From: Oscillospiraceae bacterium
GTDB lineage: Bacteria; Bacillota; Clostridia; Oscillospirales; Ruminococcaceae
Assembly: GCA_017435045.1 (NCBI GenBank)
Contig: JAFSFT010000027.1
Location: 1 to 55,214 of the forward strand
Direction: 5' to 3'
Length of the DNA: 55,214 bases
The first letter of the stretch is position 1, and every line of letters begins with the position of its first letter. Both the position numbers and the translations under genes were made by a program. Shown in pieces: positions 11,954 to 40,362 of the stretch. Under the pieces are notes generated by a model, which was given only the letters and a program-made list of their open reading frames with translations, was not told the DNA's origin and searched no databases.

Positions 11954-12787
11954 CTAACAGTTAATGGCGTTGATAAGCTTAATCAGCACAGGTTCAAATT
12001 TTGCACCATACCAGTGGTTTTCTTCTTCTGCGGTTGCCTTTATGCATTCTACAGTATAGTCTGCAGCAATTTTTGCCGCGTCAAAAGCAGTTTTGCCTCT
12101 TACAAGGGCACCCACAAAAGCGGAGGCATAGATATCGCCTGTGCCGTGACAGCTGTTTGGCAGCTTGTCGTGTTCGTAATAGCTGTATACACCGTTTTCG
12201 CACACTACAATGCCTGTTTTGCCCTGTATATAGGAAACACCGCTGAGAATAATATTTCTGCAGCCAAGTGCAGAAAGTTTTTCCAGAAGGCTGTCTATAT
12301 ATTCTCTGTCATATTCCTCTCTGTATTCCATATCGGTAAGAAAAGCCGCTTCGGTGATATTAGGGATAATATAGTCAGCCTTGGCGCAAAGCTTTTTCAT
12401 AGCGGCAACAAATTCTGTGTCAAAGCCAGGGTATAATCTGCCGTTGTCTGCCATGGCAGGGTCTACTATTTTTGTGCAGTTTTCTGCACTGTTTGCGGCA
12501 AAAATATCAGCCACATATTCAATCTGCTTTGTGCTGCCAAGATAGCCTGTGTAAATTGCATCAAACTTTATATTTTCCTTTACCCAATGGTCTTTTATGG
12601 CTGGCATATCATCGGTTAAATCACGGAAGGTATAGCCTTTAAAGCCTGCTGTATGGGTAGAGAGCACAGCGGATCGAAGCACGCAGGTTTCGATGCCGCA
12701 GGCAGAGATAATAGGTAAAGCAACGGTAAGGGAACACTGTCCCACGCAGGAGATATCCTGTATTGTAAGTATTTTTGGGTATGCCAT
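11954..12787 (-). CDS. pdxK: Pyridoxal/pyridoxamine kinase
   Basis: 277 residues of the ribokinase-fold PdxK/PdxY family: N-terminal ILTIQDISCVGQCSL, substrate region LRSAVLSTHTAGF, and the catalytic anion-hole motif CHGTGD near residue 223. It phosphorylates B6 vitamers to make PLP or its precursors. ATG 12785 follows AAGGAGC. It is flanked by an ECF S component and a MocR-type regulator, which supports a B6 salvage role. A pair of direct repeats just upstream is shared with the S-component promoter. The symbol could equally be pdxY. Confidence 0.9.
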   Translation of the reverse strand: MAYPKILTIQDISCVGQCSLTVALPIISACGIETCVLRSAVLSTHTAGFKGYTFRDLTDDMPAIKDHWVKENIKFDAIYTGYLGSTKQIEYVADIFAANSAENCTKIVDPAMADNGRLYPGFDTEFVAAMKKLCAKADYIIPNITEAAFLTDMEYREEYDREYIDSLLEKLSALGCRNIILSGVSYIQGKTGIVVCENGVYSYYEHDKLPNSCHGTGDIYASAFVGALVRGKTAFDAAKIAADYTVECIKATAEEENHWYGAKFEPVLIKLINAINC

Positions 12788-12836
12788 ATATCAAAGCTCC
12801 TTTGTTCTGGTTTCTATGATTATAATATACAATAAA

Positions 12837-12883
12837 ACTGATAATATAAAATGACCAAAATTGTAATATATTATATAACCAAA
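12837..12883 (-). promoter_or_regulatory. Tandem 24-nt-spaced operator repeats at the kinase promoter
   Basis: On the minus strand two direct repeats, TTTGGTTATATAATATATTA (12864-12883) and TTTGGTCATTTTATATTATC (12840-12859), start 24 nt apart. A TATAAT -10 box lies just downstream (12819-12824) with a poor -35 overlapping the second repeat, the usual layout for an activator. Likely sites for the MocR-type protein encoded at 13704. Confidence 0.7.
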
Positions 12884-12885
12884 AA

Positions 12886-12923
12886 CTGCTGTCAGAATAT
12901 ACCGAATGGTATTCTGACAGCAG
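12886..12923 (-). terminator. Terminator of the ECF S-component gene
   Basis: A 14-bp perfect stem CTGCTGTCAGAATA with its complement, with TTTTT after it on the minus strand. It separates the S-component transcript from the kinase promoter. Confidence 0.85.
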
Positions 12924-12942
12924 CCGTTTTGTTTTTATCTGA

Positions 12943-13500
12943 TTATTTGTCGCCGATGATGCCTGCACGTTTAAAGGCAGGTTCAATCATATAGTAAAGG
13001 ATAACCGAAACCACCATTGCAAGCAGTGCATTGATCAGGCTGGCAGTGCCCTTTGTTATAAGCACGCCCACAACTGTCTGCCATGGGTTGCCCATAATAA
13101 GGTATTCCACAACAAAAGTTTTGCCAAGATAGAGGATGACGTAGCTTACAGAACCGATAACAGCCGCAAGTACAACCTTTATTTTGTTCTTTTTGCCGCT
13201 TGCTATAAGCCCTGCAACAAATGCCATGGCAAATTTAAGGATAAATGTAATCCAGAATTCCTTGGCGTAGAACGGGTTCATCAGGTCATATATAGCACCG
13301 CCTATACCTGCGGCAAGGCCGCCCGGCACAGCACCGAACAGCAATCCGCCCAGTATGCACATTACATTGCCAAGATGTATTCTTGTAGGGCCAAGGGGAG
13401 TTGGTATTGGAGGCAGCTGAATCTGGTTGCCAACAAATACAACAGCAGCCATAACGCCAATCATTGTCAGGTCTTTTACGGTAAACTTCTTTTTTCTCAT
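12943..13500 (-). CDS. ECF transporter S component, probable B6 vitamer
   Basis: 185 residues with about six membrane segments: TMIGVMAAVVFVGNQIQLPPIPTPLGPTRIHLGN is the typical S-component start, with a Gly/Ala-rich helix (GGLLFGAVPGGLAAGIGGAIYD) next. S components capture a vitamin and use the shared EcfA-A'-T module, which is not in this window. Neighbouring B6 kinase and MocR genes and shared promoter repeats point to pyridoxine or pyridoxal (PdxU type). That ligand is an inference from context. Confidence 0.82.
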   Translation of the reverse strand: MRKKKFTVKDLTMIGVMAAVVFVGNQIQLPPIPTPLGPTRIHLGNVMCILGGLLFGAVPGGLAAGIGGAIYDLMNPFYAKEFWITFILKFAMAFVAGLIASGKKNKIKVVLAAVIGSVSYVILYLGKTFVVEYLIMGNPWQTVVGVLITKGTASLINALLAMVVSVILYYMIEPAFKRAGIIGDK

Positions 13501-13549
13501 ATATATAATACACTCCTGTGTCTGTTTGCAGATACAGTATACTATTAAG

Positions 13550-13596
13550 CTGGTAGTAAGTTAATAACCAAAGTGATAGTGAATTATATGACCAGA
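13550..13596 (-). promoter_or_regulatory. Tandem operator repeats and promoter of the S-component gene
   Basis: Minus-strand repeats TCTGGTCATATAATTCACTA (13577-13596) and TTTGGTTATTAACTTACTAC (13553-13572) start 24 nt apart, the same spacing as at the kinase gene. The second overlaps a TTAACT -35 box, 17 nt before a TATACT -10 box (13538-13543). Confidence 0.7.
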
Positions 13597-13703
13597 TTGG
13601 ACGATGTGTAAAGAGCATATACAGAGGAAGAAAAAGCCGGTAAAAGATATAAAATGGGGACTCCGTTTTATTTCAACAGGAAAACACTGCAGAAGCACAG
13701 CGG

Positions 13704-14786
13704 CTATTTGTTCTTTCTTCTCTGTCTTCGCACACGGTTGATATTACGCTCAAAATCACCATTATTTATAAGCTCTGCCAGTACATACTGCTCAAATACA
13801 GGCACGGTGCAGGAGTAAAAACCAAGCTTGTTTTCAAATTCCTCAACCAGCTGTTTTGGCAGCACCATATAGCCTACACGGAAGGATGGAGCAATAGTGC
13901 GGGAAAAGGTGTTTATATAGATAACCTTGTTATTCTTGGCAAGGGAAAAAACGGTGTCTTCTGCCTTGGTGGATACCGTCAGCTCCGAGTCATAGTTGTC
14001 CTCAATAATATATCCGTTGCGTTTTTCTGCCCAGTTTATGTATTCATACCGCTTGGAGGCCCTTGCGGTTACACCGCTTGGGAAGCTGTTGAAAGGGGTT
14101 ATATGCAGCACGCTGGCCTCAGTGCGTTCCAAAGCGTCTGTGCGTATGCCGTCGCTGCCCATTTTAAGCAGGTCACATTCAACACCGTTGGCACGGTAAA
14201 CGCGGACAATCTGCTCGTAGGATGGGTTTTCCAGTGCAAATATGCGGTTTTTGCCCAGCAGCTGAACAATAAGGCTGTAAAGGTATTCCGCACCAGAACC
14301 TATAACAATCTGCTGTGGGGTGACATTTATACCGTTACTGCGCGCAAGATAGCTGGAGATTGCTCCACGCAGCTCCACACAGCCCTGATTTGGGGATTTT
14401 ACAAGAATATTTTCGCCATAATCCAGCAGCACTTTCCGCATGGTTTTAGACAGAACAGAAAATGGAAACTGGCTGTCGCCGGAAGCTGTGGCAATGCTGT
14501 GTGCGGTTTCGGTATATGATGTGTCGGCGGTGGATATAAAATCGCTTTCCTTATATATTACAAAGTAGCCGCTGCGCTGGCGTGCCTCTACATAACCTTC
14601 GTCGCAGAGGATGGAGTAGGCGTGCTCAACAGTTATAACACTTACTTCGCTTTCTTCGGCAAGCAGGCGTTTGGAGGGCAGCTTGGTGCCATATGGAAAA
14701 ACACCGCTTACAATGTCCTTGCGCAGCTGTACATACAGCTGCATATATGCACTTTTACTGCTTGAGCTATCTATGGAATATTTCAT
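13704..14786 (-). CDS. MocR/PdxR-type regulator, degenerate aminotransferase domain
   Basis: 360 residues. Residues 1-78 are a GntR winged helix (LRKDIVSGVFPYGTKLPSKRLLAEE, ITVEHAYSIL, GYFV). After a linker, residues 105-345 are a fold type I aminotransferase domain (CVELRGAISSYLARS, ENPSYEQIVR, EDNYDSE). Two features are odd. The PLP lysine motif SFSKT reads TFSRT, so Arg296 replaces the Schiff-base Lys. The protein also stops at about the start of the small C-terminal subdomain; MocR proteins are usually about 450-480 residues. The region past the stop in all three frames shows no aminotransferase remnant, so this is a deletion rather than a simple frameshift. By location it likely controls the kinase and S-component genes. 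Confidence 0.85.
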   Translation of the reverse strand: MKYSIDSSSSKSAYMQLYVQLRKDIVSGVFPYGTKLPSKRLLAEESEVSVITVEHAYSILCDEGYVEARQRSGYFVIYKESDFISTADTSYTETAHSIATASGDSQFPFSVLSKTMRKVLLDYGENILVKSPNQGCVELRGAISSYLARSNGINVTPQQIVIGSGAEYLYSLIVQLLGKNRIFALENPSYEQIVRVYRANGVECDLLKMGSDGIRTDALERTEASVLHITPFNSFPSGVTARASKRYEYINWAEKRNGYIIEDNYDSELTVSTKAEDTVFSLAKNNKVIYINTFSRTIAPSFRVGYMVLPKQLVEEFENKLGFYSCTVPVFEQYVLAELINNGDFERNINRVRRQRRKNK

Positions 14787-14996: not shown

Positions 14997-15581
14997 TTAT
15001 TCTATGGCACCGTTTTTGAGGTACAGTATTTCTGCACCCAGTGCCTTTGCTTCTTCAATCTGATGGGTAACCATAATCACGGTCAGCCCTTTTGTATTTT
15101 CCAGCAGATAATTCTGCACGCAGTTCAGCGTTTCTTCGTCAAGGCCTTTAAAGGGTTCGTCCAGAAACAGAATTTCCTTATGTGCCAGTATCGCACGCAC
15201 CAGTGCAACACGCCTTTTCATACCGCCGCTCAAGGTGGAAACTTTGTGCTTTGCTTCCTTTTCCAGCCCCACAGCCGCAAGATGCTGCATAATAACACCA
15301 TCGGTCAGGCTGTCGTTTGCCATACGGATATTGGTTATAACCGAAAAACTTTCGCACAGGCGGTTTTCCTGAAAAACTGCAGATTTAAGCCGCGGAAGAT
15401 TTAAAATTTCTCCGCTGTCAGCTGTTACAAAGCCCATCATTATATTAAGCAAAGTGGTTTTGCCCACACCGCTTTGCCCCATAAGACAGGTGGTCTCTCC
15501 GTGTCTGATAACAGCGTTTATATTGTCCAGCACCTGTTTTTCGCCAAAGGATTTGCACAGATTTTTTACGATAATATCCAT
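14997..15581 (-). CDS. ABC ATPase of NitT/TauT/thiamin-precursor type
   Basis: 194 residues from ATG 15579-15581, chosen because GGAGGG lies just upstream. Walker A GQSGVGKTT, signature LSGGMKRRVALVRA and Walker B ILFLDEPFKGLD are intact. It is short for an ABC ATPase (usual 240-260), lacking the extra C-terminal part. Its start overlaps the permease stop by one base. Confidence 0.9.
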   Translation of the reverse strand: MDIIVKNLCKSFGEKQVLDNINAVIRHGETTCLMGQSGVGKTTLLNIMMGFVTADSGEILNLPRLKSAVFQENRLCESFSVITNIRMANDSLTDGVIMQHLAAVGLEKEAKHKVSTLSGGMKRRVALVRAILAHKEILFLDEPFKGLDEETLNCVQNYLLENTKGLTVIMVTHQIEEAKALGAEILYLKNGAIE

Positions 15582-16330
15582 TATAAACCCTCCATTGTGC
15601 TGAACAGTATGTTGATTACACACATTACAGCCTTTTCAAACAGCACACTTACAAGAATAATTGTAACCGTCCAGCTGAACAGGTCTGCCGTTGCCAGATA
15701 CAGCTTTGCCTGATACAGCATTTCGCCCATACTGCCGTCAGGTATGCCGATAATTTCTGCGGCAATGCCTGCTTTCCAGCTTAAGCCCAGAGAAACACTG
15801 CAGGCCGAGACAAAATGGCTTTTAACCTGTGGAAAATAGATGTAAAGCAGCCTTTTGCCAAAGGAAAAACGGAAGATTTCTGCCATTTCCAGCAGCTTTC
15901 TGTCGGTGCTTTTAAAGCCGCCCAGCATATTGGTGTAGATGATGGGAACAGCCATAAGAAATGCTATAAAAATAGGCAGCTGGGAGGAGGACAGCCATAT
16001 AAGACACAAAATTACAAAGCTTGCAACAGGCGTTGCCTTGATAATTGAGATATACGGCCACAGGAAAATCTCCACTATTCTGAAGCGGTAGGACAGTATT
16101 GCCAAAGCTGTGCCCGCAGCCAAAGCAATAAAAAAGCCAAGTGTTATCCTTTTAAAGGAAAATAATATTGTGCCCCAGAACTCTGCCTCAAAAATCAGCT
16201 CCGACAAACGAAGTACAACCTTTAAAGGGGAAACCAGCAGAACTTCTTCGCCGATTGCGACAGCAGCAAGCTGCCACAGCAAAACTGCTGCGGCAACTGC
16301 CAGTATTTTTTCAAATCGGTTTCGGTTCAT
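15581..16330 (-). CDS. ABC permease of NitT/TauT type
   Basis: 249 residues with six membrane segments and the EAA-like coupling loop (LLEMAEIFRFSFGKRLLYIYFPQ). The region SVSLGLSWKAGIAAEIIGIPDGSMGEMLYQA is characteristic of the SsuC/ThiX/NitT permeases. Middle gene of the operon. Confidence 0.9.
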   Translation of the reverse strand: MNRNRFEKILAVAAAVLLWQLAAVAIGEEVLLVSPLKVVLRLSELIFEAEFWGTILFSFKRITLGFFIALAAGTALAILSYRFRIVEIFLWPYISIIKATPVASFVILCLIWLSSSQLPIFIAFLMAVPIIYTNMLGGFKSTDRKLLEMAEIFRFSFGKRLLYIYFPQVKSHFVSACSVSLGLSWKAGIAAEIIGIPDGSMGEMLYQAKLYLATADLFSWTVTIILVSVLFEKAVMCVINILFSTMEGL

Positions 16331-16388: not shown

Positions 16389-17402
16389 TTATCTTGCAAA
16401 GTAGAATTCGTCTGTTGGCATTGCACCGCCTACAGCTTTAGGGTTTTGGTCGTAAAGTGTCTGGAGATAGCCGCTTACAACTGTTTTCATTTCTTCGCCT
16501 TCCATAAACTGGATGTTGCAGTTTGGGATAGCTTTTTTGGCAACAGCAGCTTTTACAATGCCGAGGCTTTCAACAAGTGCAGCACCTTCTTCAACATTTG
16601 TGTTGATAAATTCTGTAGATGCCTTGAATTCGTCAAGGAAAGCGGAAACCTGTGCAGGATTTTCTTCTACAAATGCTTTTCGTGCAACGATAACGCCTGT
16701 TACAAGGCTGGAACCGTTACCAAGTGCGTTCCATTCATCATTGAAGCTGAGAGCAACCTTAAGACCTTCAACCTGTGTCTGTGCAACTGTTACAAATGGC
16801 TGTGGAAGCACAGCGATTGCTGTAGGGTCCTGTTTGAGTACTGCCACAATTTCTGCAGCTTCGCTTTTCCATTCAATTGTTACATCTTTTTCAGGGTCAA
16901 GACCGTTCTGTGCCAGCAGATAGTTAAGTGCGTATTCAGGTGTTGTGCCTTTGCCTGTGGAGTAGATTGTTTTGCCTTTAAGGTCTGCAAAGCTTGTAAC
17001 AGCTTCGCCCTGTTCAACAACGTAAAGAACACCAAGATTGTTTATGGCAAGAATCTGAATTTTGCCCTCTGTGTTGTTAAAGAGAACAGATGCAAGGTTT
17101 GCAGGAACAGCAGCAATGTCAAGCTCGCCTTTTACAAGGAGAGGTGTAATTTCGTCAGCAGCACCGGCAAGTGTAAAGTTATAGTTGTTTACTGTTTCGC
17201 CTTTAGCAGATTTGTCCAGCATAGAAACAAGTCCCATGGATGTAGGTCCGCTCATACCTGCAATGTTGATGTCAATGCCTTCCACAACTTCAGGCGCAGG
17301 TGTAGGCTCTGCTTCTGCAGATGGTGTTTCAGGTGCACTGCAGCCTGTAAAAACAGCTGTTGCAAGCACAGCGGAAAGAATAAGGGATAATAATTTTTTC
17401 AT
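16389..17402 (-). CDS. NMT1/THI5-like substrate-binding lipoprotein
   Basis: 337 residues with a lipoprotein signal (lipobox VFTGC, Cys21), an Ala/Glu/Pro linker and a binding fold (GPTSMGLVSML, ELDIAAVPANLASVLFN, GKTIYSTGKGTTPEYALNYLL). This is the family that binds pyrimidine thiamin precursors (ThiY), taurine, nitrate or similar small molecules. The leader upstream has promoter, structured element and attenuator, so expression is likely controlled by the ligand or a product of it. Confidence 0.88.
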   Translation of the reverse strand: MKKLLSLILSAVLATAVFTGCSAPETPSAEAEPTPAPEVVEGIDINIAGMSGPTSMGLVSMLDKSAKGETVNNYNFTLAGAADEITPLLVKGELDIAAVPANLASVLFNNTEGKIQILAINNLGVLYVVEQGEAVTSFADLKGKTIYSTGKGTTPEYALNYLLAQNGLDPEKDVTIEWKSEAAEIVAVLKQDPTAIAVLPQPFVTVAQTQVEGLKVALSFNDEWNALGNGSSLVTGVIVARKAFVEENPAQVSAFLDEFKASTEFINTNVEEGAALVESLGIVKAAVAKKAIPNCNIQFMEGEEMKTVVSGYLQTLYDQNPKAVGGAMPTDEFYFAR

Positions 17403-17482
17403 ATTAATTTGCCTTTCTCACTTTTGATTTTGCCATTATATATGGCATTGTGTGATTTTATCCTCAGAGATATCTGAAAAAC

Positions 17483-17508
17483 AAAAAATCCATGCACAAA
17501 GGCATGGA
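17483..17508 (-). terminator. Leader attenuator ahead of the NMT1-like ABC operon
   Basis: TCCATGC-CTTTGT-GCATGGA followed by TTTTTTG on the minus strand, lying 80 bp before the binding-protein start codon and 60 nt after the structured leader element. A terminator between promoter and gene implies premature termination control. Confidence 0.8.
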
Positions 17509-17570
17509 AACAACTGACAATTATAACTGTATTGAATATAATTGTGCAAAAATCTGTTTACTTCGCCTTT

Positions 17571-17648
17571 AGTGTCGGGAAAACCCTTCATTTCAGTACG
17601 TGTGAATTTTTTGTTCCTTATCTCAGATATACTTTGAATTCGGACACT
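17571..17648 (-). ncRNA. Candidate riboswitch, class not recognised
   Basis: A 78-nt segment that begins at the predicted transcription start and is closed by a P1-like stem, AGTGTC (17643-17648) with GACACT (17571-17576). Inside, GGG-TTTT-CCC forms a small hairpin against P1, and GAATT/AATTC (17634-17640 and about 17604-17610) can form a second helix around CTGAGATAAGGAAC. It does not carry the conserved blocks of TPP, SAM, purine, glycine, guanidine-I or FMN riboswitches as I know them. The structure is seen; the riboswitch role is inferred from the promoter-aptamer-terminator layout. Confidence 0.5.
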
Positions 17649-17651
17649 GTT

Positions 17652-17680
17652 ATTTTATCATAATGCGGCATTTTTTGCAA
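17652..17680 (-). promoter_or_regulatory. Promoter of the NMT1-like ABC operon
   Basis: TTGCAA, 17-nt spacer, TAAAAT on the minus strand. Its start point falls right at the P1 stem of the structured leader. Confidence 0.75.
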
Positions 17681-17685
17681 TAAAA

Positions 17686-17707
17686 AAGACGGCATAAGCC
17701 GTCTTTA
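17686..17707 (-). terminator. Terminator of the small membrane protein gene
   Basis: AAAGACGGC-TTAT-GCCGTCTTT followed by T on the minus strand. It overlaps the start of the next promoter region. Confidence 0.88.
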
Positions 17708-17739
17708 AGTGATAATATCACATACTGTTGGTGTGTATA

Positions 17740-18264
17740 TCAGTACAGATAGTGGTCTGCTGCTGCATTTTTTGTTTTGTTGAATGCCACAAGAAAAAGA
17801 GCACAGCATACAAAATATGCCAGCACAGCAATGATGTTTAGTAATGGAATAAACACTGTAACGGTAGAGGCACAAAGTGCAATTATGGAGATTTTCCACA
17901 TACGGCGAAGATCGCTTCCCAATATATTTACATTTTTGTTCTCCTCAAGCCAGAGAATGCCCTCTGTTATGTTGAAGGAAGTGTAGATGTTTGCAGCCAT
18001 CATAACAACACTTACAACAAAGTACATTGCACCGATATTGACAGCAAGAAAGTCCATTATATATATAACGATGCTTACGGCAATCATAATTTTTGAAAAA
18101 TTTTCTATCTTTGCAAAGGCGGGAACCTTGCCTTCAAATTCGTTTATACCCCTTTTAACAAATATGTAGCCTACAAAGGTCGGGATAAGGCCCACAACAT
18201 GGTTGCTTACAGTAAAGTTGAAATTTAAAAATATAAATATCATACCTATAAAAAAGTTTTCCAT
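17740..18264 (-). CDS. Small polytopic membrane protein, unknown function
   Basis: 174 residues from ATG 18262-18264, chosen for the GAGGAGG site just upstream. It has about five hydrophobic segments (VSNHVVGLIPTFVGYIF, IMIAVSIVIYIMDFL, and others), a charged middle (WLEENKNVNILGSDLRRMWK) and no domain I recognise. Monocistronic. Confidence 0.75.
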   Translation of the reverse strand: MENFFIGMIFIFLNFNFTVSNHVVGLIPTFVGYIFVKRGINEFEGKVPAFAKIENFSKIMIAVSIVIYIMDFLAVNIGAMYFVVSVVMMAANIYTSFNITEGILWLEENKNVNILGSDLRRMWKISIIALCASTVTVFIPLLNIIAVLAYFVCCALFLVAFNKTKNAAADHYLY

Positions 18265-18544
18265 AAAAACCTCCTCACAGAAAACATCTGAATTTAAACA
18301 TATAATATATTTATCACAATTGTGTGTGAAAAGCAAGTTGAAGTGCAGTATTGTTGATAAAATTAACGTATAACAGGTGCACAAAAAAGCGAAACTTTGG
18401 CGAATTTTATTTAGCTAAAATTGGCAATAAAGATAAATTATTATAATCTTTGATTATGGTAATATTTTATATACTGGAAATTATATCCGGGGACGGATTA
18501 AATATTACAGCTTTAACTTTTAACCAAAAAGGAGCGATGCTTTT

Positions 18545-40178: not shown

Positions 40179-40330
40179 CTCTGTCCTTTTGCCTGAGAGA
40201 TTCAGGGCGTTGCCCCTTGCACCTTCGGCACTCACTCGCGGTGAGATTCTCCAGAGTTCCCTCGGGTTTTAGTCCTTTTTCTCCTGAGAGTGCAACTCCT
40301 TCGGCAGACATTTGCTGTCACTTTCCTAAA
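40179..40330 (-). ncRNA. Tandem glycine riboswitch
   Basis: On the minus strand two aptamers in series carry the gcvT hallmarks: TGCCGAAGG twice (about 40289-40306 and 40223-40231), CTCTCAGG twice, AAAAGGAC twice, and CTCTGGAGA between the two. The linker joins them as in other cooperative tandem forms. It should sense glycine and control the symporter. Confidence 0.94.
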
Positions 40331-40362
40331 ACTTTCAAAGGGAATATTCATTTGATGTGGAT

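What the first reader, a model, noticed from the sequence alone, without database searches (positions are those of the whole stretch)
17483..17680. Unclassified promoter-leader-terminator ahead of an NMT1-like importer: possible new riboswitch
A promoter (TTGCAA-17-TAAAAT) is followed at once by a 78-nt element closed by AGTGTC/GACACT, about 60 nt of linker, and then a clean intrinsic terminator before the binding-protein gene. This layout is that of a transcriptional riboswitch. I could not match the conserved blocks of the common classes. The gene family suggests a thiamin pyrimidine, a B6-like compound or another small nitrogen compound as ligand.
Basis: partly seen in the sequence, partly recalled or inferred. 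Interest (0 to 1): 0.75.

Follow-up and report, generated by a model that had tools for sequence, protein, structure and literature searches.

The report
New RNA switch for hydrogenase assembly
The stretch of RNA in front of this importer gene looks like a distant member of a small, apparently undescribed RNA hairpin family that, in related gut and rumen bacteria, sits mostly in front of the genes that build the metal centre of hydrogen-making enzymes and probably decides whether those genes are read.

Summary
The promoter-leader-terminator is real; the proposed 78-nt closing stem is not conserved. The leader recurs in 7 of 16 genus genomes and reaches no Rfam 15 family. Its core, 17567-17596 (-), is a divergent member of a ~34-nt hairpin class: CUGA-stem-RAA-stem-loop-stem-UGM-stem-RAAGG. 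A covariance model of 35 such hairpins (R3), none from the window's leader family, finds this spot as best in the 55-kb window (27.7 bits, E=2.4e-5; next 14.0) and as one of two sites at E<=0.01 in its genome. Of the 30 best class-wide R3 loci, 29 lie before [FeFe]-hydrogenase maturation genes: TM1266, hydE, hydG, hydF, aspA. Stems covary; the RAAGG strand pairs with the terminator or is the Shine-Dalgarno of hydG. Best reading: a new attenuator RNA class, hairpin formed = OFF. The effector is unproven: TM1266 protein (present in exactly the 7 genomes with the leader) or a small molecule. Against: most of the window's sister leaders score poorly with R3, and HydG is absent from the genus, so the importer's cargo is open.

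The parts
17652..17680 (-). Promoter TTGCAA-17-TAAAAT
   Evidence: -10 position conserved in relatives
17616..17643 (-). Hairpin D1 (CCGA-AUUC-AA-AG-loop-CU-GA-GAUA-AGG), a weak second copy of the hairpin motif
   Evidence: R3 10.9 bits, below the noise level of about 14 bits in this window; CC/GG and AG/CU pairs in 7 of 7 leaders, P1a 20 of 28 cells
17567..17596 (-). Hairpin D2 (CUGA-AAUG-AA-GGG-UUUU-CCC-GA-CACU-AAAG), the core member of the class
   Evidence: R3 27.7 bits, E=2.4e-5, best of the window; E=7.9e-4 for the whole genome; one A-C mismatch in P1a
17564..17571 (-). 5' strand of the proposed antiterminator, UAAAGGCG; overlaps the 3' strand of D2
   Evidence: pairs with 17497-17504 in 56 of 56 cells of 7 leaders
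17497..17504 (-). 3' strand of the proposed antiterminator, UGCCUUUG; overlaps the terminator 5' arm and loop
   Evidence: duplex energy -9.3 kcal/mol in the window
17483..17508 (-). Intrinsic terminator stem 17508-17489 with T run
16389..17402 (-). NMT1/THI5-like substrate-binding protein gene, the first gene controlled
   Evidence: PF09084, E 2.1e-9
15581..16330 (-). ABC permease gene of the same operon
14997..15623 (-). ABC ATPase gene of the same operon

Best explanation
The leader is a two-hairpin, divergent member of a new cis-regulatory RNA class whose usual place is in front of [FeFe]-hydrogenase H-cluster maturation genes. Shown by computation: the hairpin class, its covariation, its gene association, and that its 3' strand complements the terminator or coincides with the Shine-Dalgarno sequence of hydG. 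Inferred: when hairpin D2 is formed and held, AAAGG is hidden, the antiterminator cannot form, the terminator folds and the importer operon is off; when D2 is not held, UAAAGGCG pairs with the terminator arm and transcription goes on. Inferred at roughly 45%: what holds the hairpin is the small TM1266 protein, acting in trans and autoregulated through the same RNA; the main alternative is a small molecule of H-cluster metabolism.
For: R3, made without any leader of the window's family, picks this spot as best of 55 kb and as one of two sites at E<=0.01 in the genome, the other being the leader of the genome's TM1266 gene. R2, made from five leaders of the same operon in other genera, aligns the whole window leader in the same register (17.6 bits, E=0.0011 in 401 nt, next 4.8). 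Class: pattern without pairing demand in 39 of 121 TM1266 upstream regions against 0-1 in controls; free 4-mers pair 3.65 of 4 against 2.39+-0.13; 79 two-sided changes, covariation 0.628 against 0.206+-0.023. Association: 29 of 30 best class-wide loci, 26 of 27 without the three training sequences. Antiterminator: -9.7 against -6.8+-0.34 kcal/mol with dealt partners, 0 of 300; 56 of 56 cells in the window's leader family. hydG copies cover the Shine-Dalgarno in seven loci. TM1266 in 7 of 7 genus genomes with the leader and 0 of 9 without.
Against: Most sister leaders are poor matches: with R3 only G399 D2 (20.2 bits) stands out; G396 D2 7.8; G183, G398, G400 only D1 at 8.7-10.3, below noise (a stray hit scores 14.8), and G397 nothing assignable; with R2 over 468 kb the window hit has E=1.3. 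The window D2 has an A-C mismatch in P1a and no unusual folding energy. HydG is absent from all 16 genus genomes, so the link to hydrogenase is historical here or indirect. 44 of 121 TM1266 loci show no terminator by my scan and 82 of 121 lack the strict pattern. TM1266 is lacking in the genome of L053, which has a leader; TM1266 genes of G399, L322, L324 and L325 have no R3 hit themselves. The seven leader genomes are near relatives, so 7 of 7 against 0 of 9 may be one event. No expression was measured.
Confidence: 0.72

Rival explanations
1. Same RNA class and same switching, but a true riboswitch: the hairpin, alone or as the D1-D2 pair, binds a metabolite or metal compound of H-cluster assembly, and TM1266 is only a neighbour gene with its own task.
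For: Two conserved purine-rich internal loops inside a covarying rod; terminator and Shine-Dalgarno versions as in many riboswitch classes; a leader in the genome of L053, where TM1266 was not found.
Against: TM1266 follows the RNA even where hydG is gone and, at the place examined in G396, where hydE and hydF are gone too.
Confidence: 0.35
2. The window leader is an unrelated attenuator of the same operon that resembles the class by chance.
For: Weak R3 and R2 scores of most sister leaders; narrow spread, 7 genomes of one genus.
Against: E=2.4e-5 in the window and E=7.9e-4 in the genome at the one place where a leader of this operon stands; same operon, same order of promoter, hairpins, antiterminator and terminator in other genera.
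Confidence: 0.1
3. A riboswitch for a thiamin pyrimidine or B6 compound.
For: NMT1/THI5-like binding protein; PdxR-like regulator, ECF S component and pyridoxamine kinase lie downstream.
Against: No Rfam class matches; the RNA class sits at H-cluster maturation genes; in L035 the ABC genes are not followed by those B6-type genes.
Confidence: 0.04

Closest known systems
NMT1 motif / xanthine riboswitch (PMC7373994, passages seen)
   Same: A hairpin with an internal bulge of conserved bases, found before NMT1-type genes among others; OFF switch.
   Different: Reported exclusively from Proteobacteria, with almost no terminators and with purine-oxidation genes; no Rfam match of the window leader; here Clostridia-type genomes, terminators, hydrogenase maturation genes.
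TM1266 family, TIGR03959 / PF21699, structure 2nzc
   Same: Named 'iron-only hydrogenase system putative regulator' by NCBI and Pfam; gene stands directly behind many of these leaders.
   Different: No target or mechanism appeared in the papers listed by my searches; an RNA target is proposed here.
Protein-bound attenuator hairpins such as the tandem hairpins read by ANTAR proteins or the TRAP and PyrR sites (recalled, no call)
   Same: Short hairpins near terminators or ribosome sites, some in tandem.
   Different: Different sequence and loops; the weak PyrR-site match at L244 is on the strand of the leader but far below its gathering score (14.9 against 54 bits).

Membership tests
H-cluster leader hairpin class (defined here by model R3) | Significant match to a model built without the candidate's family | tested here: met
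   27.7 bits, E=2.4e-5 in the window, E=7.9e-4 in the genome
H-cluster leader hairpin class (defined here by model R3) | P1a and P1b stems around RA/GA loops | tested here: met
   GGG/CCC and AA/GA present, P1a 3 of 4 pairs with one A-C mismatch in the window; sister leaders deviate
H-cluster leader hairpin class (defined here by model R3) | RAAGG strand shared with an antiterminator or a Shine-Dalgarno | tested here: met
   UAAAGGCG/UGCCUUUG, 56 of 56 cells in 7 leaders
H-cluster leader hairpin class (defined here by model R3) | Gene context of H-cluster maturation or TM1266 | tested here: inconclusive
   The window's copy precedes an NMT1-like gene without TM1266 between; in four sister genomes TM1266 stands between leader and NMT1-like gene, and in this genome TM1266 lies on another contig
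Known Rfam 15 riboswitch classes (TPP, guanidine, xanthine, PreQ1 and the rest) | Score at or above the gathering cut-off | tested here: not met
   class members also not matched
Riboswitch in the strict sense | Specific ligand bound by the RNA without protein | not testable with these tools
   needs in-line probing or similar
TM1266-bound attenuator | TM1266 present in genomes with the RNA | tested here: inconclusive
   7 of 7 in the genus and absent from the 9 without leader; 3 of 4 other genomes with a leader but no adjacent TM1266

The most novel reading that the evidence does not exclude
TM1266 founds a family of RNA-binding attenuation proteins that report the state of H-cluster assembly through this hairpin, at terminators and at the start of hydG. 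In lineages that lost HydG and most maturation genes the same RNA-protein pair was kept to govern an NMT1-like importer, which supplies or salvages a building block or by-product of that chemistry.
Probability: 0.2. Interest if true: 0.92.

Novelty: new variant of a known kind. Interest (0 to 1): 0.82.

Why it matters
The H-cluster is among the most elaborate metal cofactors known, and its assembly enzymes are closely studied, but none of my ten paper searches listed a regulatory RNA for it. A compact hairpin found at E<=0.01 in 53 of 236 sampled class genomes (about two chance hits expected), before TM1266, hydE, hydG, hydF and aspA in the loci examined, gives a direct handle on how anaerobes match cofactor assembly to need, gives the unstudied TM1266 family a testable role, and ties an importer of unknown cargo to this chemistry. 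The mechanism (attenuation, Shine-Dalgarno masking) is of a known kind; the RNA family appears new as far as Rfam 15 and the searched papers show.

Tried and rejected
Rejected: the 78-nt AGTGTC/GACACT stem. Rejected: known classes; no match reached a gathering score at the leaders, and E<=10 scans of four leaders gave scattered sub-threshold matches only, the best being sraL at L072, E=0.061, 16.8 bits against a cut-off of 39. Rejected: a leader peptide; no start codon or frame is shared by the leaders (read by eye). Taken as chance: R1 family hits L083-L087, each inside a listed ORF of at least 222 aa; L100, in what reads as a coding stretch; the other R1 genus hits at E 0.1-0.7 were not inspected; L121, 22.8 bits, intergenic but without the 3' half, was not followed further. 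The first consensus fold of six leaders had no two-sided change. MAFFT misplaced hairpin D1 by one base in several rows of ten type-2 leaders, so R2 rests on five rows and A5 was not used.

Limits of counts: the 121 TM1266 loci hold three places fetched twice (L214/L236, L215/L254, L216/L228), 21 loci chosen because they carry the NMT1-like gene, and lack 4 of the 101 places. A6 holds 35 of the 57 hairpins kept by the finder, which demanded P1a pairing, so P1a counts lean to the structure; P1b was not demanded and demanded neither. Counts ignore relatedness; the 41 pairs include duplicates. Of 58 R3 places only the 30 with loci were examined; three of these (L327, L328, L332) are training sequences. 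HydG labels rest on tblastn with a fragment, on the reading of the ORFs; NCBIfam confirmed HydG for L278 only. L339 and L346 were assigned to TM1266 by reading the start of the ORF. The constrained folds also lost the terminator and are not used; its free folds show the terminator in 6 of 7 leaders and the antiterminator in the window.

Papers: ten searches, listings seen. Passages only: PMC9481103, PMC10418091, PMC7373994, PMC11736057. PMC9431212: the terms sought were absent. PMC6429828 and PMC2864571: listing only, zero occurrences of 'hydrogenase'. The 2017 survey of 224 RNA motifs was not held and not read.

Full report
OBSERVATION. On the minus strand the window carries a promoter (17680-17652), a leader and an intrinsic terminator (17508-17489) before an NMT1/SsuA-like binding-protein gene (16389-17402), followed by a permease and an ATPase gene. 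The arms AGTGTC/GACACT are present 78 nt apart, but over 7 relatives only 30 of 42 cells pair, the outer two pairs in 3 of 14. Rfam 15 shows nothing relevant at gathering scores over the window or at E<=10 over 17300-17760.

RELATIVES. The NMT1-like gene has a match in 121 of 297 sampled family genomes, in 16 of 16 genus genomes and at 49 loci of titled genomes. The leader was first seen in the window and five relatives; a sequence-only model of these six (R1) finds it with E<=1.1e-24 in 7 of 16 genus genomes, and no further convincing copy in 396 family and 394 order genomes sampled. In four of the seven (G183, G397, G398, G400) it is followed by a small gene of the TM1266 family (TIGR03959) and then the NMT1-like gene; in the window, G396 and G399 by the NMT1-like gene directly. 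In eight of the nine other genus genomes a palindrome GTTGCNNNNGCAAC stands near the start of this gene instead.

TYPE-2 LEADERS. In other genera the same operon also has promoter, leader and terminator, without Rfam hits. They share a hairpin CUGA-CGGC..GCCG-AAAG and a terminator complementary to the AAAG strand. A structured model of five of them (R2) recovers seven others at E<0.05. Next come L068 (19.4 bits) and the window leader (17.7 bits, E=1.3 over 468 kb). In a targeted scan of 401 nt without filters the window leader scores 17.6 bits, E=0.0011, next best 4.8, in the register read by eye. Of the other six type-1 leaders four are hit in register at 6.6-10.2 bits, two not at all: not significant.

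HYDROGENASE LINK. R2 over 394 order genomes gave five hits at E<=0.01: two leaders of the TM1266-NMT1 operon and three new places, one of them in the window's own genome (C66:33042-33122, 32.8 bits). All three lie just before TM1266; in L214 and L216 hydE follows, in the own genome an 87-aa ORF that begins like HydE and then hydF. TM1266 occurs in 94 of 197 order genomes. Of 121 TM1266 loci assembled (21 of them chosen through the NMT1-like gene), 73 are followed by HydE, 31 by the NMT1-like gene, 17 by neither; 77 have an intrinsic terminator within 130 nt upstream, 44 do not. Reading the leaders gives one compact hairpin: CUGA-P1a-RAA-P1b-loop-P1b'-UGM-P1a'-RAAGG.

TESTS OF THE HAIRPIN. A pattern with no pairing demand is present within 300 nt upstream of TM1266 in 39 of 121 loci, against 1 in the reverse complements, 0 and 1 in two coding stretches and a mean of 0.05 in 20 shuffles; the free 4-mers of its 34 unique motifs pair 3.65 of 4 against 2.39+-0.13 with partners dealt anew. 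On 35 aligned hairpins 92.7% of cells pair, 79 cells change on both sides, and the covariation score is 0.628, against 0.206+-0.023 shuffled and at most 0.173 slid. These rows were chosen partly for P1a pairing, not for P1b. The 3' strand and its own terminator form a better duplex than dealt partners, -9.7 against -6.8+-0.34 kcal/mol in 41 loci, 0 of 300.

R3 AND THE WINDOW. R3 was built on those 35 hairpins, none of them a type-1 leader. It finds the window's D2 at 17563-17599 as best of 55,214 bases, 27.7 bits, E=2.4e-5; second is 14.0; D1 is fourth with 10.9 bits, below noise. Of the sisters only G399 follows clearly (D2 20.2 bits, E=0.0013 in 22.6 kb); G396 has D1 12.5 and D2 7.8; G183, G398 and G400 show D1 only at 8.7-10.3; for G397 nothing can be assigned; a stray hit in the same set reaches 14.8. 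The D2 of the four TM1266-linked sisters reads CUGC with UU in place of AA, yet its P1a pairs form in all four. So membership rests on the window, G399 and the type-2 comparison, not on all seven.

CLASS SURVEY. R3 over 236 class genomes has hits at E<=0.01 in 53, in 44 of 155 genera; about two would be expected by chance. The own genome has two hits, the TM1266 leader (40.1 bits, a training sequence) and the window leader (27.7 bits, E=7.9e-4). Of the 30 best loci 17 lie before TM1266, 7 before hydG, 3 before hydE, 1 before hydF (L333, 576 bits to TIGR03918), 1 before an aspartate ammonia-lyase gene (L351), and 1 (L353) within a coding stretch; 26 of 27 without the three training loci. The other 28 places were not examined. 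The aspA case fits a report that aspA is associated with the hyd operon and that AspA can supply ammonium for the dithiomethylamine ligand (PMC11736057, passages). In seven loci a further copy covers the Shine-Dalgarno of hydG, with different but matching stems.

HOW IT LIKELY WORKS. The 3' strand of the hairpin (RAAGG) is shared with the antiterminator or is the ribosome site, so a formed and held hairpin should mean OFF in both settings. In the window's leader family UAAAGGCG pairs with UGCCUUUG in 56 of 56 cells, duplex -9.3 to -12.2 kcal/mol; free folds show the terminator in 6 of 7 leaders and the antiterminator in the window. All of this is inferred from sequence; no read-through was measured.

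EFFECTOR. TM1266 is present in exactly the 7 of 16 genus genomes with the leader, in three of them away from the importer. These seven are near relatives, so this may be one event. G396 keeps a lone TM1266 with its own leader (R3 25.0 bits) at the place where the window's species still has an 87-aa hydE-like remnant and hydF. HydG is absent from all 16, the control Thermotoga maritima being positive. So TM1266 and the RNA persist together after loss of HydG. Of four further genomes with a leader and no adjacent TM1266, three have it elsewhere and one (L053) not, against a base rate of 94 of 197. TM1266 genes of G399, L322, L324 and L325 show no R3 hit. TM1266 has invariant basic residues in 11 aligned sequences (R6, H28, R37, R43, K77), which would suit RNA binding but prove nothing. 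A metabolite riboswitch is a close rival.

NOVELTY. No Rfam 15 family reached its cut-off at the leaders scanned, nor did sub-threshold scans show a credible relative. Ten paper searches listed no such RNA; one key motif survey was not held. I file the RNA family as new and its mechanism as a known kind.

Noticed in passing
window 40179-40338 (-): Tandem glycine riboswitch (two RF00504 aptamers).
   Followed up: no
window 11954-14786 (-): PdxR-like MocR regulator, ECF S component and pyridoxamine kinase genes lie downstream of the ABC operon: a possible B6 salvage cluster.
   Followed up: no
L112-L119, about 80-100 nt upstream of the NMT1-like gene: Palindrome GTTGCNNNNGCAAC near the promoter in eight of nine genus genomes without the leader; in the wider set a Crp-like gene stands upstream of the NMT1-like gene in 38 of 179 regions and never together with TM1266. 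The importer may have alternative DNA-level control.
   Followed up: partly
own genome C66, L215:844-1107 (-): 87-aa ORF between TM1266 and hydF that begins like HydE and then departs; looks like a deletion remnant.
   Followed up: partly
L036 3562-3596 and L037 3525-3559: R3 hits (22.3 bits) before TM1266 in Eisenbergiella tayi and a Lachnospiraceae bacterium, so the class reaches beyond the window's family.
   Followed up: no
window 17740-18384 (-): Upstream membrane-protein-like ORF without a Pfam hit, with its own terminator at 17706-17685.
   Followed up: no
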